51,532 bases of DNA from Candidatus Levybacteria bacterium RIFCSPHIGHO2_01_FULL_41_15 (lineage in GTDB: Bacteria > Patescibacteriota > Microgenomatia > Levybacterales > UBA12049): positions 1 to 51,532 of the forward strand of contig MFNV01000010.1 of assembly GCA_001782165.1 (NCBI GenBank). The letters run 5' to 3'. Within the stretch, counting starts at the first letter, position 1; the number at the start of each line of letters is the position of its first letter. The notes under the pieces were generated by a model, which was given only the letters and a program-made list of their open reading frames with translations, was not told the origin of the DNA and did no database searches. Positions 1 to 51,532 of the stretch are shown here, one piece after another. The position numbers and the translations under genes are program-made.

Positions 1-3000
1 GTTGGCTACCAGGCCCTCTACTCAAACACGACAGGCGCCAACAACACCGCCGTTGGCTACCGGGCCCTCTACTCAAACACAACAGGCGACTACAACACCG
101 CCGTTGGCTACAGTGCTCTCTCCTTAAACACAACAGGCGCCAGCAACACCGCTCTTGGCTACGACGCAGGTCGTACAAACAGCGGACAGTATTACAACCA
201 GACAGGAAGCAATAATGTATATCTTGGGTACAATGCAGGACCATGGACTCAGAATGCATCTTTTAATAACTCAACTGCCATAGGAGCGTATTCTCTGGTT
301 AATGCAAGCAATTCTCTGGTTCTCGGAGGAACAGCATTCTATGCAGTAAATGTAGGTATCGGCACCGCAACCCCATCAGCTGTACTTGATATCCAGGGAG
401 GACAAATGGGAGGAAATGCTGCTCTAATAGTAAACCAGACAGGAGTAAGTACAAATGATCTAATCACCGCCTCAGCATCAGGAACAACTAAATTTACTCT
501 TTCCAATGCCGGAGTAGCGTCCTTGGTAGGAGGCCAGACTGCAGATCTAACATCCCTTGGTAATGCAAATCTGACAATATCCGCAGGTGGTACAGGAGAC
601 CTAAGGCTTCTTTCTGATTCAGATACAGATATTCTCCTTCCCTATTCTGACTTTACATCTGAGGACAACAGTGTTCTATACACAGGTGTTGGCGGAAAAC
701 TCTCAGCACTTACTACTACAACATCAGGTCTGTGTATAGTCTCTGCAGCTGCTGACAATGCTCCTACATGGGCTACATGTCCCGGAGGATCCGGAGGAAG
801 CTCTAACTGGACACTTGATACCACAAATGGGCTTCTTTTCCCAAATAATAATACGGTAGATTTACTGGTTGGCGGCAGGGCAACCTCCTCTGCCAAATTC
901 GCAGTCTTAAACATAAACTCCGGTACTCCAACAGCATCTGTTTCTGCAGGAACAGCAGGAGGAGCTTTCTTGACAGCTGATGGGTATCTTTCAAGTACAG
1001 CAAGACAAACATTAACAATCGGTAATTCCTCAACCTACAATACCACAGGAAATGTCCTTCTTAATCCAAATGGAACAGGAAAAGTAGGAATAGGTCTTAC
1101 CAACCCCAATAACAATATCCAAGTTCTTGACCTTATCAACTTTGATGCAACAACCTCAGGAACCTTCCTTGGCTATAGAACTGGTTATGCTAATTCAGGC
1201 ACTGGAAGTACATTTGTAGGCTATGAGGCTGGATTTAGGAATACCACAGGTGTAAATACAGCCGTAGGTTATCAAGCCTTAGATGCGAATACAACAGGGA
1301 CCGCAAATGTGGCGATTGGGAAGTTTGCCCTTGGGGCTAATACCTCTGCCAGCAGTAATACAGCGATTGGTAATCAAGCCTTACAATCGAATACAACAGG
1401 GATCAAGAATGTGGCGATTGGAAGTACTACACTCCTCTCAAACACCACGGCCAGCCATAACATGGCGATCGGCTTCCAAGCCCTAACACTCAATACAACA
1501 GGAGCCCAAAATGCGGCGATTGGAAGTAGTACACTCCTCTCAAACACAACAGGCGCCAACAACACCGCCATAGGATTTCAAGCAGGATATGGAGCACCGG
1601 GGACAGGATTGTATGCAAATACAACAGGAAGCAATAACACTTTCATAGGGTACAATGCATCTGCCTTTTCAGCAACCCAGAGAAACAATATGACAGCGAT
1701 TGGAGTTTTCTCTGTTGTTGATCAGGCTAACTCTTTGGTTTTGGGAGGACTTGGATTTTATGCTGTGAATGTAGGTATTGGTACAGCCACTCCATCTGCA
1801 GTCCTTGATATACAAGGAGGCCAAATGGGAGGAAATGCCGCTCTTATTGTGAACCAGACAGGAGCAAGCGCAAATGATCTATTTACAGCCTCTGCCTCGG
1901 GCGTTACCAAATTTACAATACAAAATGGGGGAACAGCCTCATCAGCGGGGAATTTTGTATTTGATACTACGGGAATTATATCAACCACCAAAAAACAGAC
2001 CTTAACCTTGGGCGATGCAAATACCGGGGAGATACATATTTATACCCCTGCCGGAGCTAAAACCGAATTATTATGCTCAAACGCGTCCCATGGCGATGCA
2101 CTGGCCTTAAGTGATGCGAGCATTGGAGATTGCTCCAATGCCGGTCAAGGGGATATTGCTGAATATTATGGTTCTTCCGGAGATTTAGAGCCCGGAGATT
2201 TAGTAGTTATGGACCAAAATAAGGCTCCCCAAGAAGTCCAGACTGATGTAGGTCATGGAAGTAAAGCTTGGGTAAAAAAATCCAGCTATCCATACGACAA
2301 TAAACTTATAGGAATAGTATCGACTAATCCTTCCCGCTTCTCATTATTATCTGATGGAGTCTTTGAAGAAGAAGAAATTTCCGTTCCCGTTGCCCTAGTT
2401 GGCCGAGTACCGGTTAAAGTTTCAACCGAAAACGGACCTATTAATATAGGAGATGTACTGACATCCTCTTCGGTTCCCGGAGTCGCGATGAAGTCTACCA
2501 GAGCAGGACAAGTTGTTGGAAAAGCTTTGCAATCCTTCGACGGAGCTCAGGACGACATTGGTCGGATAATTGCCTTTGTGAATGTTTCCTGGTCTGACCC
2601 ATCGGTTTATATTACTGCGGATGGAACCTTAGCAAATACCAATCCTTTGAGCTCAGAGGCGGCGGCGCTGGCGCTGGGGCTACCTTCGGTGCCCGAAGCG
2701 CCAACAATTATGTCTAACGATCCCGTATCGTCAGCCTCGTCATCATCTGGGAGTTTTGATTTGGCGAGTGATCAGAACTTTATAGATCTTAAGAACAGAG
2801 TGGCAAGTGTTGAAGCGCAAATTGAAAGTTTGCGCTCGGATATTATAAACAGTTCGACCCAGTCCGCATTCTTGCAAAGCGTTTTGGGCGACACGTCAAA
2901 CGTGCCTATCGCGTCTGACTCGGCAGAGTTTGTCTCAAATCTTCAAAACCTTGATATACAGTCGGCTACGATTTCGGGAAACCTTATGGTTTTGGGGAGA

Positions 3001-3492
3001 ACAACACTCTCGGATCTTGGAGTAACAGGAAATATAACGGCAGGGCTTCTCTCGATTCACGGTTTGGACAGTTCGGCTAACAACGGAGACGGGGGGGCGA
3101 CTATAAATAGCATTGGAGATCTCAACCTTCAAAACAATCAGTTGGGCGGAATAAATATACTTGCCGGCAAAGTTACAATTGATAATAAAGGAAACATTAA
3201 GACAGAGGGCGAGCTCACAGTTAAGAAAGTCAATATAGATACGGCCGCGTCAGACGCGGCATCGTTGGGTTCCGCAACCCTGCTCGCAGGACAGACCAGT
3301 GTCATAATTGAGACGACTGCGGTTACCAATAAGTCCAAAGTATTTATAACGCCTACAACCAAGACAGGGAACAGAAGCTTGATAGTTTCGCAAAAGAGCG
3401 CGGGGACAGGATTTACAGTCACAATCGAAACATCTTACACAAGCGATATTAAATTTGACTGGTGGATTGTGGACGAAGTCCACAATCCATAA
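1..3492 (+). CDS. Large repeat-containing surface/tail-fibre-like protein (5' end outside window): NTTG.NTAVGYQAL repeats, Peptidase_G2/IMC-like region, C-terminal coiled coil and beta region
   Basis: Frame 1 is open from base 1 (VGYQALYSNTTGANNTAVGYRALYSNTTG...) and in frame with ORF 406..3492, so 406 is an internal Met. GDLVVMDQ...GIVSTNPS...VALVGRVPVKV resembles Peptidase_G2-like domains. Confidence 0.85.
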   Translation, partial: VGYQALYSNTTGANNTAVGYRALYSNTTGDYNTAVGYSALSLNTTGASNTALGYDAGRTNSGQYYNQTGSNNVYLGYNAGPWTQNASFNNSTAIGAYSLVNASNSLVLGGTAFYAVNVGIGTATPSAVLDIQGGQMGGNAALIVNQTGVSTNDLITASASGTTKFTLSNAGVASLVGGQTADLTSLGNANLTISAGGTGDLRLLSDSDTDILLPYSDFTSEDNSVLYTGVGGKLSALTTTTSGLCIVSAAADNAPTWATCPGGSGGSSNWTLDTTNGLLFPNNNTVDLLVGGRATSSAKFAVLNINSGTPTASVSAGTAGGAFLTADGYLSSTARQTLTIGNSSTYNTTGNVLLNPNGTGKVGIGLTNPNNNIQVLDLINFDATTSGTFLGYRTGYANSGTGSTFVGYEAGFRNTTGVNTAVGYQALDANTTGTANVAIGKFALGANTSASSNTAIGNQALQSNTTGIKNVAIGSTTLLSNTTASHNMAIGFQALTLNTTGAQNAAIGSSTLLSNTTGANNTAIGFQAGYGAPGTGLYANTTGSNNTFIGYNASAFSATQRNNMTAIGVFSVVDQANSLVLGGLGFYAVNVGIGTATPSAVLDIQGGQMGGNAALIVNQTGASANDLFTASASGVTKFTIQNGGTASSAGNFVFDTTGIISTTKKQTLTLGDANTGEIHIYTPAGAKTELLCSNASHGDALALSDASIGDCSNAGQGDIAEYYGSSGDLEPGDLVVMDQNKAPQEVQTDVGHGSKAWVKKSSYPYDNKLIGIVSTNPSRFSLLSDGVFEEEEISVPVALVGRVPVKVSTENGPINIGDVLTSSSVPGVAMKSTRAGQVVGKALQSFDGAQDDIGRIIAFVNVSWSDPSVYITADGTLANTNPLSSEAAALALGLPSVPEAPTIMSNDPVSSASSSSGSFDLASDQNFIDLKNRVASVEAQIESLRSDIINSSTQSAFLQSVLGDTSNVPIASDSAEFVSNLQNLDIQSATISGNLMVLGRTTLSDLGVTGNITAGLLSIHGLDSSANNGDGGATINSIGDLNLQNNQLGGINILAGKVTIDNKGNIKTEGELTVKKVNIDTAASDAASLGSATLLAGQTSVIIETTAVTNKSKVFITPTTKTGNRSLIVSQKSAGTGFTVTIETSYTSDIKFDWWIVDEVHNP

Positions 3493-3521
3493 TTGTTAAA
3501 TTGTTCGATTGCTAAATTGCT

Positions 3522-3893
3522 ATGAAATATCTGGAGTTGAATGACATAACTTCTTATAAAAAAGCCTTCCTTCTGTCTAATTATGTTTGGGACATTATTT
3601 CCTCTTGGAAATTCTTTGAAAAAGAGACTGTAGGAATTCAATTTGTAAGATCAATAGATTCAATATCGGCTAACATCGCAGAGGGGTTTGGAAGATTTAA
3701 CAAGAAAGATAAAATTAAATTCTATTACTATTCATTGGGTTCTGTTCGGGAAAGTTTGGACTGGAATGAAAAGTCAAAAATTAGAAAACTTATAAGTGAA
3801 AGTCAATATAAGAAGATTTTTTCTGAGCTAGAATTTTTACCTAAAGAGATTCATCAGTTAATTAAATTTACTTTTAGTAAATTGAAGCAATAG
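3522..3893 (+). CDS. Four helix bundle protein (S23/IVP family)
   Basis: FVRSIDSISANIAEGFGRFNKKDKIKFYYYSLGSVRES is the classic 4HB (PF05635/TIGR02436) motif. Confidence 0.88.
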   Translation: MKYLELNDITSYKKAFLLSNYVWDIISSWKFFEKETVGIQFVRSIDSISANIAEGFGRFNKKDKIKFYYYSLGSVRESLDWNEKSKIRKLISESQYKKIFSELEFLPKEIHQLIKFTFSKLKQ

Positions 3894-3922
3894 AACAATA
3901 CAACAATCTAACAATTGTTAAT

Positions 3923-4267
3923 ATGAGTATAGAATTATCTCTTTACATCGAAAAAAGGATTTTAAATCTTCTGCTTTTTGCCTTGGAGCTTAAAAGGCAA
4001 CTGCCTGAAAGCTCTGATAATTTCATTTTATCCAATCAGATAGTAAGGATAATAAGACGCCTTGAGAGTATTTATGAGATGGCAAGGCAGGTAGGAGAAG
4101 GGGAGGAATTCGTTTCAGTGATGGTTGAAGCACAGAAAGAGGCGCGAGAAACGAAGTATTGGATTAGGGTTCTAAAAGAGTCAAATGCGCAACTACGTAT
4201 AATTTCGGAGCTTGAGGATGAAAGCGAGGAGCTAATTAAGATTTTCTCAAGAATTATCAGTATGTAG
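3923..4267 (+). CDS. Four helix bundle-like protein
   Basis: QIVRIIRRLESIYEMARQVGEG...EAQKEARETKYWIRVLKES matches the 4HB C-terminal motif EA.ET.YWL.LL. Confidence 0.65.
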   Translation: MSIELSLYIEKRILNLLLFALELKRQLPESSDNFILSNQIVRIIRRLESIYEMARQVGEGEEFVSVMVEAQKEARETKYWIRVLKESNAQLRIISELEDESEELIKIFSRIISM

Positions 4268-4302
4268 AATTAATTGCTAGATTGCTAAATTGCTAAATTG
4301 TT

Positions 4303-4896
4303 ATGAAATATCTGGAGTTGAAAATGAAAAATAAGAATTTAAAGACCAAGGCGGGATATGAATATCTGCTGGCTTATAAAATAACTGTACCAATTTATGA
4401 CTACACGGTTGAATTTGTAAAAAGATGGATTAACGGTCGCTCAAGAACCAAAGATCAAATGGAGCAGGCTGCCCGTTCGGGGATGACAAACATTGCAGAG
4501 GGAAATAAACAAAAGAGCCTGGAGCTTTATATAAAATTGGCTGGTATTTCGCGAGGAAGCCTTGAGGAGCTTTTGAAAGATTATTTATCTTTTGCTAGAC
4601 AAAACTCTATAGATATTTGGGATAAGCAAAGATGTGTAAGGGAAATAAGGGAGATAGGGCAGATATGGGAAATAATAAAGAAAAATCCTACTCTCCCGGA
4701 TTCCCCCAATTTCCCCAATCTCCCACATGATAAGGAGAAGGCAGTTAATTTAATGCTGACTCTAATAAACCAAGCAAACTATCTTTTAGATAAATTAGTC
4801 GAGGCCTTGCTAAAAAAGCATCAGGAGAAGGGCGGATTTTCAGAGAACCTTCTTAAAAGAAGAATTGAATACAGGAGCATTAAGCTAAAACAATAG
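4303..4896 (+). CDS. Four helix bundle suffix domain-type protein
   Basis: MEQAARSGMTNIAEGNKQKSLELYIKLAGISRGSLEELLKDYLSFAR. Confidence 0.8.
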   Translation: MKYLELKMKNKNLKTKAGYEYLLAYKITVPIYDYTVEFVKRWINGRSRTKDQMEQAARSGMTNIAEGNKQKSLELYIKLAGISRGSLEELLKDYLSFARQNSIDIWDKQRCVREIREIGQIWEIIKKNPTLPDSPNFPNLPHDKEKAVNLMLTLINQANYLLDKLVEALLKKHQEKGGFSENLLKRRIEYRSIKLKQ

Positions 4897-4977
4897 AATG
4901 AGCAATATAACAATAAAACAATTGAGCAATTCAAGGCATACTTGACAGACTAATCTAATCTGCTAGAATAAACTTGC

Positions 4978-7431: not shown

Positions 7432-7475
7432 ATTTGACGACGATTTGACGATCCCGTATCGTTATGTTTTCGTCA

Positions 7476-7898
7476 CTACTTGAGTTCAACCGTAGCTCCC
7501 GCGGTCGTTAGTTTTTCCTTGGCTTCTTCCGCTGTCTTTTTGTTGACCTGAGTCATAACCTCTTTTGGCGCAGCGTCCACCAAATCTTTTGCTTCCTTAA
7601 GTCCTAATGTTGGGACCAATTCTCTTAGAGCTTTAATGACTGAAATTTTATTTGCTCCGGAATTTGCAATTACAACATTAAAGACAGTTTGTTCTTCCAC
7701 TGGCTCCTGATCTCCCGCCGGTTGCGCTGCTCCGTTTGCCGGTATGGATGCAACCATTGCCTGAGCCGAAACTCCAAATTTCTCTTCAAGTGCTTTCACA
7801 AAATCAGAAAGCTCCAAAACTGTCATCTGTCCGACTGCTTTTATTAAATCGTCTGTTTTCGTCCCCGATTTAATCGGGGTCGTTTTTTTATCTGCCAT
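7476..7898 (-). CDS. rplL: Ribosomal protein bL12 (L7/L12)
   Basis: [21 protein letters not shown]...[31 protein letters not shown]; start taken at 7898 with GGAGGTG upstream rather than ORF-track 7925. Confidence 0.95.
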
Positions 7899-14162: not shown

Positions 14163-14222
14163 AATTCAGTTATGAGTTCAGGGTTCTTAGTTATGAGCAC
14201 CTTTTAGCGTATAAGTGTATAT

Positions 14223-14555
14223 TATATAGATTTTTTTAATTTACTCAACATCTTTGAAATAGTTATAATTTTTTCTAGCAAAGCATCCTTTTCGCTTTAA
14301 CTTATTAATTTTTGTTTAAATGACGTTTCTATTAAGGGTACACATTCGTGAGCAGATCCGCGGCTAATTGTTATAAAACGTTTAAACTCCAACCTTGTTC
14401 TACTAGCGCCTTCTGCTATGTTTAAGACAATCGACAAAAATGCTCTTCTTATTTGATCAGTGAGAGAAAAAGAATGTTCTCTTGGCCACTTTTTAGTTAT
14501 CTCATAAACTTCGTTACAGAAATCAAAGCTATTTGATAAACTTTAAGTTTTTCAA
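14223..14555 (-). pseudogene. Degenerate four helix bundle (S23/IVP) gene between nusG and rplK
   Basis: Minus-strand translation (one frameshift, one in-frame TAA): NFEKLKVYQIAL / DFCNEVYEITKKWPREHSFSLTDQIRRAFLSIVLNIAEGASRTRLEFKRFITISRGSAHECVPLIETSFKQKLIS*SEKDALLEKIITISKMLSKLKKSI. Confidence 0.85.
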
Positions 14556-14591
14556 AATTAAACTCATAACCCATAACTCATCACTCATCAC

Positions 14592-42785: not shown

Positions 42786-42813
42786 ATTACTAATATACTA
42801 GTATAATAGTAAT
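42786..42813. promoter_or_regulatory. Near-perfect palindrome, candidate TrpR-family operator
   Basis: ATTACTAATATACTAGTATAATAGTAAT, one mismatched pair in 14. Confidence 0.7.
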
Positions 42814-42819
42814 TGGTGA

Positions 42820-43251
42820 TTAATCCCAATTCCCAGAGGCAAACTTTGCCCTTGCTTTCATATTTGTTTTTGATTTTAGAGCAAGATCAACTGGTTTTAA
42901 TATTTTTCCTATCTTCTTGAAAAAATTGATTACATTTTCTCTTTTCAAAAGCTTTTCTATGGTTTGGTGAAAAGAAGAGTTTTTGTATTTGAGCTGGTTC
43001 TGGTACGTTCGGACAGTTTCATAGCTAACATGAAGAGCAGATTGAATAGAGTCAGGAAGGAAGCCTCTTTTAAGCATCATAAAAAGAACCAACCGCTTTG
43101 TTAACATGATTTTTTCCTCTTTTGTCAGAAATTCCTCAAAAAAATTTTCAATCTCATTCGCATTGGTTAAAGATGATACAAGGAAAGCAAAATGCTCTTT
43201 TATTTCTTGAAGTTGATTTTGACTAAGATGAAATTTAGAAATTCTGGTCAT
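42820..43251 (-). CDS. TrpR/YerC-YecD family transcriptional regulator
   Basis: LTKEEKIMLTKRLVLFMMLKRGFLPDSIQSALHVSYETVRTYQNQLKY. Confidence 0.85.
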   Translation of the reverse strand: MTRISKFHLSQNQLQEIKEHFAFLVSSLTNANEIENFFEEFLTKEEKIMLTKRLVLFMMLKRGFLPDSIQSALHVSYETVRTYQNQLKYKNSSFHQTIEKLLKRENVINFFKKIGKILKPVDLALKSKTNMKARAKFASGNWD

Positions 43252-43284
43252 AAATACTAATATACTAGTATATTAGTATTTATG
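43249..43284. promoter_or_regulatory. Perfect 36-bp palindrome over the regulator start codon (candidate operator)
   Basis: CATAAATACTAATATACTAGTATATTAGTATTTATG is its own reverse complement. Confidence 0.85.
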
Positions 43285-50809: not shown

Positions 50810-51532
50810 TTTTTTGAGGATTTGATCCTGGTCCAGGATGAACGCTGGCGGCGTGCCTTAGGCATGCAAGTCGTTCGGTCCGTAGGACCGAACAGTTAAC
50901 AGTTGACCAATTGACCGTTAACAATTTAACATAAAAGAGTGAGAACTTTTAGATTTCTAGAACTCCCAGTCTATAAAGATGGAAAGTCTTTTTATCGAAA
51001 ATGTTTATTTCTAACTAAGAATTTGAATAAACAGTATTGGGAATTAGGTGACCAGTTAAGAAGGGCAGCATTATCGGTTTGTCTTAATATTGCAGAGGGA
51101 TCTGCAAAGTATTCTGATAAAGATTTTAAAAGATTTCTTGAAAATTCACTGGGATCTATTAATGAAGCCATCGCTTGTTTAGATATAGCTTATGATAACT
51201 CGCTAATAAAGAAGGCAACATACGAGGATTTAAAAGTTTTGGCAGAAAGTATAACAAAACAACTTGAAGGATTGGCTAAGAAACTTCGAAGCTCTTAATT
51301 TGTTAGTTTGTTAATTGGTCGAAAGTTAATTGTTGAAAGTTCTGTCCTACGGACAGAGGCGGACGGGTGAGTAACGCGTAGGAATCTACCTCTGGGTGGA
51401 ACATAGCTCATCGAAAGATGGGGTAATATTCCATAGCCTCAAGGTGGTACCTTGAGAAAATCCTAAGCACAAAATTACAAATTCTAAATAATATCAAAAT
51501 CACAATAACCAAAATACAAAACAGTTTGGGAT
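50810..51532 (+). rRNA. rrs: 16S rRNA gene, 5' part, interrupted by two insertions; continues beyond window
   Basis: gatttgatcctggtccaggatgaacgctggcggcgtgcc...catgcaagtcg (50810..~50893); gaggcggacgggtgagtaacgcgtaggaatctacc...ctcaaggtggtaccttgagaaa (~51339..~51459). Confidence 0.95.
50939..51298 (+). CDS. Four helix bundle (IVP/S23) protein encoded inside the 16S rRNA gene (GTG start)
   Basis: YWELGDQLRRAALSVCLNIAEGSAKYSDKDFKRFLENSLGSINEAIACLDIA. Confidence 0.92.
   Translation: MRTFRFLELPVYKDGKSFYRKCLFLTKNLNKQYWELGDQLRRAALSVCLNIAEGSAKYSDKDFKRFLENSLGSINEAIACLDIAYDNSLIKKATYEDLKVLAESITKQLEGLAKKLRSS

What the first reader, a model, noticed from the sequence alone, without database searches (positions are those of the whole stretch)
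3491..3920. Intergenic 4HB gene flanked by complementary arms, same architecture as the 16S IVS
The left arm aattgttaaattgttcgattgctaaattgct (3491..3521) and the right arm agcaatagaacaatacaacaatctaacaatt (~3887..3917) are complementary at about 25 of 31 positions and hug the 4HB ORF 3522..3893. This suggests that the 'IVS' is a mobile stem-ORF-stem element not restricted to rRNA genes.
Basis: partly seen in the sequence, partly recalled or inferred. Interest (0 to 1): 0.75.

Follow-up and report, generated by a model that had tools for sequence, protein, structure and literature searches.

The report
Mobile stem-gene-stem elements, IVS-like, intergenic
A small gene flanked by two matching, oppositely oriented repeat arms turns out to belong to a large family of mobile DNA elements, found across several bacterial phyla and mostly between genes, of which the long-known insertions inside ribosomal RNA genes appear to be a special case.

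Summary
Confirmed and extended. The arms are real (25 of 31 pairs; 3491-3521 / 3886-3916) and frame a PF05635/TIGR02436 four-helix-bundle (4HB) gene. A second 4HB gene 400 bp away (4303-4896) has the same kind of arms. In 31 genomes of the family, 82 of 105 PF05635 genes have complementary arms, against 36 of 692 control genes (odds ratio 65). Arms are degenerate 7-8-nt word repeats. Each 4HB subfamily has its own word, and left and right arm of one copy match each other rather than those of other copies. Relatives of ORF1 (60-73% identical) occur in Patescibacteria, Bacteroidota (including Pedobacter isolates), Chlorobiota/Ignavibacteria and Planctomycetota; 71 of the best 80 keep arms, largely with the same word. 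Empty sites exist in 16S helix 6, nusG-rplK and a Pedobacter locus. Arms-only versions exist, one at the very 16S site that holds a 4HB element in the window's genome. Genomes with the ORF1 subfamily carry many dispersed arms of its word. The protein is under purifying selection and folds like the S23 pentamers and Avd. So the 'IVS' is one habitat of a general stem-ORF-stem element. No transposase was found: how it moves is inferred, not shown.

The parts
3491..3521 (+). left arm of element 1 (period-8 word ATTGYTNN)
   Evidence: 25/31 complementary to 3886-3916; pattern hits
3522..3893 (+). ORF1, 4HB protein of the KYLxLNDI subfamily, 123 aa, net charge +7
   Evidence: PF05635 1.5e-21, TIGR02436 1e-22; AF2 pLDDT 95.5, four helices; fold 2GSC/2RLD/Avd
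3886..3916 (+). right arm of element 1 (overlaps ORF1 stop)
3923..4267 (+). ORF2, divergent 4HB protein without an element of its own; conserved neighbour in G003 and G008
   Evidence: TIGR02436 37 bits, PF05635 28 bits (below its cut-off); net charge -4; orthologues at the same place
4272..4302 (+). left arm of element 3, same word as element 1
4302..4322 (+). 21 nt identical to the start of ORF1 (TATGAAATATCTGGAGTTGAA, 3521-3541), absent from the G003 orthologue
   Evidence: sequence against L013
4303..4896 (+). ORF3, 4HB with suffix domain (TIGR04258), net charge +13, apparently captured between ORF1-type arms
   Evidence: orthologue G003:C9 has no arms
4901..4931 (+). right arm of element 3; also pairs with the left arm of element 1
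14163..14591 (-). stem-ORF-stem element with a broken 4HB gene (TAA inside) in the nusG-rplK spacer; arms of the word AGTTATG
50875..51357 (+). 16S helix-6 IVS: word arms about 50893-50935 and 51299-51342, 4HB ORF 50939-51298, a helix-6 copy on each side

Best explanation
The feature is a copy of a mobile element whose unit is arm + 4HB gene + arm. The arms are a few copies of a 7-8-nt word in inverted orientation, and the word is specific to the 4HB subfamily. Shown: arms and gene form one unit that recurs in unrelated genomic contexts and phyla, is absent from orthologous sites, and has arms-only derivatives; rRNA IVSs with this gene are copies that landed in an rRNA helix. Inferred: the basic 4HB protein forms a pentameric ring, as its solved relatives do, and binds the repeated words of its own arms (about one word per subunit) as single-stranded DNA or RNA, which makes it the element's specificity and mobility factor. 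Cutting, joining or reverse transcription would be done by an enzyme acting in trans, because neither the protein nor the element carries a recognisable catalytic domain. Arms-only hairpins would be non-autonomous derivatives mobilised in trans, as MITEs and REPs are. In rRNA the copies are tolerated because RNase III is known to cut IVS stems out.
For: Unit and specificity: 82/105 PF05635 genes against 36/692 control genes have complementary arms. Own arm pairs score 31.9 against 18.4 for arms of different copies; 0/2000 permutations. Protein similarity predicts arm words across unrelated flanks (Mantel r 0.34, 0/2000). ORF1 relatives in several phyla: 71/80 with arms; left-arm word 2.8 per 70 nt against background 0.085. 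Similarity between copies in unrelated contexts fades to background about 60 bp left and 100 bp right of the ORF. Sites: 16S helix 6 empty in G001, G002, G005, G007, G022, G023, filled in G000 and G003, arms-only in G019; nusG-rplK; Pedobacter; ORF1 absent or replaced at its own site in G003 and G008. Word-specific dispersal: ATTGYT arm pattern 5-58 hits in genomes with the ORF1 subfamily against 0-11 without (at least 85% complete, p 0.0003), and 0-2 in the seven genomes without any PF05635. Protein: dN/dS 0.04-0.13; fold of 2GSC and 2RLD (five chains each) and of Avd. A 30/31-identical left arm sits in an ORF-less hairpin at G000:C8:33555.
Against: No catalytic domain, no transposition seen, and no near-identical copies in one genome; the best same-genome pairs in different contexts are 78-83% identical. 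ORF-less hairpins of other words occur in genomes without PF05635 (G007, G035), and overall hairpin density does not follow 4HB number (small samples). G015, G017 and G034 carry many ATTGYT arms without a detected ORF1-type gene, although these genomes are incomplete. Subfamily-word agreement could reflect joint inheritance rather than binding. Pentamer-word binding is untested.
Confidence: 0.7

Rival explanations
1. Hairpins first: AT-rich word hairpins are a separate class of intergenic repeats, and 4HB genes are passengers that tend to sit in their loops.
For: ORF-less word hairpins are common in the family, flank housekeeping genes too, and occur in genomes without PF05635. ORF3 looks like a gene captured between ORF1-type arms.
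Against: Arms across a gene are about 15 times commoner for 4HB than for other genes. The word follows the 4HB subfamily across phyla, and the ATTGYT word is dispersed mainly where its 4HB subfamily is present; G032 and G033, with other 4HB subfamilies only, have 0 hits.
Confidence: 0.2
2. RNA-mobilised element: the 4HB protein acts as an Avd-like partner of a reverse transcriptase supplied in trans, and the element spreads by retrotransposition.
For: The fold matches Avd and the Avd subunits of the DGR ribonucleoprotein. The window's genome has an RT beside an Avd-like 4HB at C9:73-74 kb. IVSs are transcribed as part of rRNA.
Against: RT is found in only 8 of 31 genomes; G003 (98% complete) and G010 (92%) hold 8 and 9 PF05635 hits and no RVT_1 hit. 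Arm mismatches show no G-U excess (66 against 69 of A-C type), so there is no sign of selection for RNA pairing.
Confidence: 0.15
3. Arms are REPs of RAYT (Y1/HUH) transposases, and the 4HB genes are carried by that system.
For: Y1_Tnp genes occur in 19 of 31 genomes and correlate weakly with 4HB number.
Against: Y1 genes in the same genomes are flanked by GC-rich palindromes, not AT-rich word arms. G017, G018 and G032 hold PF05635 genes with no Y1 hit. ATTGYT arm counts do not follow Y1 number (p 0.16).
Confidence: 0.05
4. Arms are transcription terminators or mRNA-stability hairpins that arose by slippage around small AT-rich genes; no mobility.
For: Arms lie at ORF edges and are made of short repeats; many intergenic hairpins exist.
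Against: The left and right arm pair across the gene better than either pairs with itself in 56 of 82 cases. The same word is kept across phyla and contexts. Empty sites exist.
Confidence: 0.04

Closest known systems
rRNA intervening sequences (IVS) with the S23/23S-IVP ORF, e.g. Coxiella helix 45 (PMC4990558) and Leptospira (Ralph and McClelland 1993, as cited there)
   Same: 4HB ORF of PF05635 between complementary terminal sequences, about 430 bp; sporadic, horizontally spread
   Different: Described inside rRNA genes. Here the unit is mostly intergenic, arms are 7-8-nt word repeats specific to the 4HB subfamily, arms-only forms occur, and the ORF is under purifying selection (the Coxiella paper suggests that the protein is not made there)
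RAYT-REP system (PMC2817692)
   Same: Gene flanked by inverted copies of a repeat that is also dispersed without the gene; repeat type goes with protein type
   Different: No HUH/Y1 transposase; AT-rich repeated words instead of GC-rich palindromes with a GT(A/G)G head; both systems coexist in these genomes and look different
Avd of diversity-generating retroelements
   Same: Same fold, and homology of PF05635 with Avd noted in the literature (PMC10053308)
   Different: Avd sits beside RT and template repeat. ORF1 does not; the genome's own Avd-like 4HB (C9:74128) has no arms
CPR rRNA insertion sequences (PMC11270868)
   Same: Insertions in CPR 16S/23S genes
   Different: That survey centres on group I/II introns and LAGLIDADG enzymes; searches of its text for four-helix and IVP proteins found none

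Membership tests
rRNA IVS (23S/16S IVS with S23 protein) | ORF of PF05635/TIGR02436 | tested here: met
rRNA IVS (23S/16S IVS with S23 protein) | complementary terminal sequences around the ORF | tested here: met
rRNA IVS (23S/16S IVS with S23 protein) | inserted in an rRNA gene helix | tested here: not met
   the element at 3491-3916 is intergenic; another copy at 50875-51357 is in 16S helix 6
rRNA IVS (23S/16S IVS with S23 protein) | excised by RNase III without ligation | not testable with these tools
   needs RNA work
RAYT-REP | Y1/HUH transposase encoded in the element | tested here: not met
   ORF1 matches only PF05635/4HB families and folds
RAYT-REP | gene flanked by inverted copies of the repeat | tested here: met
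RAYT-REP | repeat dispersed in the genome without the gene | tested here: met
   ATTGYT hits at many other places of G000; ORF-less hairpins at C8:33555 and C7:79284
RAYT-REP | GC-rich palindrome with GT(A/G)G head | tested here: not met
   AT-rich 7-8-nt words
DGR accessory protein (Avd) | RT and template/variable repeats adjacent | tested here: not met
   the only RVT_1 hit of the genome is on another contig beside another 4HB gene
insertion sequence / DDE transposon | transposase and short target duplication | tested here: inconclusive
   no transposase; in 16S each side has a helix-6 copy where empty sites have one, which may be a duplication, but the sequence is palindromic

The most novel reading that the evidence does not exclude
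A previously undescribed class of mobile element without a transposase: a pentameric four-helix-bundle ring reads a repeated 7-8-nt word in inverted arms and spreads both its own gene and word-only hairpins between genes and phyla. rRNA IVSs are one of its habitats, and Avd of DGRs may be a relative of its mobility protein.
Probability: 0.35. Interest if true: 0.92.

Novelty: new variant of a known kind. Interest (0 to 1): 0.8.

Why it matters
Whether rRNA IVSs are mobile, and what their conserved ORF is for, has been open since about 1990-1993 (PMC4990558). If the IVS is one landing place of a widespread stem-ORF-stem element with a subfamily-specific arm word, the question becomes testable in culturable bacteria such as Pedobacter, the many 'four helix bundle protein' annotations gain a probable role, and a REP-like repeat system without a known nuclease comes into view.

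Tried and rejected
RNA folding of the whole element: not clearly better than shuffles (z -1.24 and -1.49). G-U test for RNA-level selection on the arms: no excess. Overall hairpin density against 4HB number over 21 genomes: not significant (small stretches); only the word-specific test was positive. RT as required partner: not supported. RAYT as owner of the arms: not supported. Plasmids: only distant 4HB relatives (32-33% identity) on four cyanobacterial plasmids; phages: none. The pair L253/L257 (95.6% identical) looked like a recent jump, but its outer flanks proved related, so it was dropped. Long-loop arm pairs around ribosomal genes in G000 lie beside complete hairpins and were not counted as elements.

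Full report
OBSERVATION. The left arm 3491-3521 and the right arm 3886-3916 are complementary at 25 of 31 positions; no shuffle of the two flanks reaches the score. They frame ORF1 (3522-3893), a PF05635/TIGR02436 four-helix-bundle (4HB) protein. A second stem-ORF-stem unit follows: arms 4272-4302 and 4901-4931 around ORF3 (4303-4896, with the 4helix_suffix domain TIGR04258). Its left arm has the same word, and 21 nt around its start codon are identical to those of ORF1. ORF2 between them is a divergent 4HB gene; the arms beside it belong to its neighbours. The window also holds a 16S IVS with a 4HB gene (about 50875-51357) and a broken 4HB element between nusG and rplK (14163-14591).

ARMS GO WITH 4HB GENES. 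PF05635 has 11 hits in the window's genome (728 kb, 98.6% complete) and occurs in 24 of 31 genomes of the family. For 105 of these genes the left flank was aligned with the reverse complement of the right flank. Own pairs score 31.9 on average, flanks from different copies 18.4; 37 of 105 have their own partner as best of all (about 1 expected), and none of 2000 permutations comes near. With the same measure 82 of 105 4HB genes but only 36 of 692 other genes reach 25 (odds ratio 65, p 3e-61). Several armless cases are informative: the G008 orthologue of ORF2, the Avd-like 4HB beside the RT, and several suffix-domain proteins in other genomes. The control genes were called by a simple ORF rule and many lie in tight operons, which lowers their chance of having arms; the permutation among 4HB flanks does not have that weakness.

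ARM ANATOMY. Arms are about 32 nt long and 85% complementary, with a repeat period of 7 nt (8 in the ORF1 subfamily). Mismatches of the G-U kind (66) are no commoner than those of the A-C kind (69), so nothing points to selection for pairing as RNA. Subfamilies tend to have their own words: ATTGTTA for ORF1-like proteins, GTTATCAGTT for IKDVTDLEVYN, AAACAAATA for DIHERIYQFV, GATAGAAGGTAGAA for IKSFRDLEVYQEAY. Protein similarity predicts word similarity among copies with unrelated flanks (Mantel r 0.34, 0/2000).

ONE UNIT ACROSS PHYLA. A genome scan with ORF1 gives at least 508 relatives. The best 80 (60-73% identical) come from Patescibacteria, Bacteroidota including Pedobacter, Solitalea and Pontibacter isolates, Chlorobiota/Ignavibacteria and a Planctomycetota MAG. 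They were chosen by protein alone, yet 71 of 80 have arms, and the left-arm word occurs 2.8 times per 70 nt against 0.085 in background. Between copies with unrelated flanks, similarity fades to background about 60 bp left and 100 bp right of the ORF. MAG contamination cannot explain the isolates.

EMPTY AND ALTERNATIVE SITES. 16S helix 6: empty in G001, G002, G005, G007, G022 and G023 (65-71 nt between fixed points), filled by a 4HB element in G000 and G003 (526 nt), and filled by an arms-only version with the same kind of arms in G019 (181 nt). Filled sites have a helix-6-like hairpin on both sides, empty sites one. nusG-rplK: about 430 bp with 4HB and arms in G000; 13-29 bp in G002, G004, G008 and G022; ORF-less word hairpins with other words in several others. 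ORF1's own site: in G003 the upstream gene is followed directly by an armless ORF3 orthologue and then ORF2; in G008 a different 4HB with different arms lies there. A Pedobacter locus upstream of a dxr-like gene (gene name from the protein start, not tested): the element is present in more than 15 of the 30 loci fetched, G189 has a 50-bp spacer, and G050 has only the right arm left. Flank identity is about 75-85%, so base-exact ends and target duplications cannot be read safely.

ARMS WITHOUT A GENE. The window's genome has ORF-less hairpins of the ORF1 word, e.g. C8:33555 between prs- and recR-like genes, whose left arm is 30/31 identical to that of element 1, and C7:79284. The pattern ATTGYTNNATTGYTNNATTGYT has 32 hits in this genome and none in the reversed control. 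Among genomes at least 85% complete, those with the ORF1 subfamily have 5-58 hits and the others 0-11 (p 0.0003). G032 and G033, each with 8 PF05635 hits of other subfamilies, have none; the seven genomes without PF05635 have 0-2. The element's own arms add at most a few hits per copy, which does not change the ranking. G015, G017 and G034 have many hits without a detected ORF1-type gene; they are 56-84% complete. Overall hairpin density did not follow 4HB number in small samples.

PROTEIN. ORF1 is basic (+7). dN/dS between related copies is 0.04-0.13, so the protein is used. The AlphaFold model (pLDDT 95.5) matches 2GSC and 2RLD, S23-family structures with five chains each, and then Avd and the Avd subunits of the DGR ribonucleoprotein. 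The literature describes 2GSC as an assembly of five four-helix bundles and notes the homology of PF05635 with Avd.

MECHANISM. The simplest reading is an element of arm + gene + arm in which the ring-forming 4HB protein reads the repeated words of its own arms. The match of four to five words per arm with five subunits is suggestive only. No catalytic domain is present, so an enzyme in trans is needed. RT is found in only 8 of 31 genomes and was not found in G003 and G010, which are rich in 4HB. Y1/RAYT genes have their own GC-rich palindromes in the same genomes (15 of 20 positive, which also shows that the method finds a known system), quite unlike the 4HB arms. ORF3 suggests that such arms can come to enclose another gene.

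NOVELTY. IVSs, their complementary ends and the idea that they might be mobile are known (PMC4990558). The 2024 survey of CPR rRNA insertions does not mention 4HB proteins in its text. Eight literature searches found no description of intergenic 4HB stem elements, their words, or their arms-only forms, but the library holds open-licence papers only.

VERDICT. Observation confirmed; interpretation supported and generalised. Open: proof of movement, the enzyme, and what the 4HB protein binds.

Noticed in passing
window 51470-51532: A second insertion in the same 16S gene begins here (caaaattacaaattctaaataatatcaaaatcacaataaccaaaatacaaaac), resembling an ORF-less hairpin family that also lies between genes of this genome (L107 13900-14039, 17000-17127).
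   Followed up: partly
G000:C9:73245-74430 (L036): A reverse transcriptase beside an Avd-like 4HB gene with no arms, preceded by an ACAGG tandem repeat: probably a diversity-generating retroelement.
   Followed up: partly
window 1-3492: Large repetitive surface-type protein with a K1-lyase C-terminal domain just upstream of the 4HB cluster; related genes stand at the same place in G003, G008 and G001.
   Followed up: partly
L366-L385: RAYT-like Y1 genes with GC-rich REP palindromes are common in this CPR family (19 of 31 genomes).
   Followed up: partly
L119 7422-7928 (G000:C9) and window 42788-43284: A small regulator-like gene (ORF 7457-7897) framed by a near-perfect 30-bp inverted repeat (AAGTCTAATAATCTAAATCATTAGACTT); a similar arrangement with another sequence frames window 42820-43251.
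   Followed up: no
L121 14411-14512, L190 16330-16414, L202 16142-16240: ORF-less hairpin family with a similar centre (TCAAATCTAAATGTTTTAAA) shared across genera.
   Followed up: no
L359, L361-L364 (Pedobacter): Other palindromic repeats (CGGTTCGTGTCCTCACGAAACGAAAT...) occupy the same intergenic site where some species have the 4HB element.
   Followed up: no
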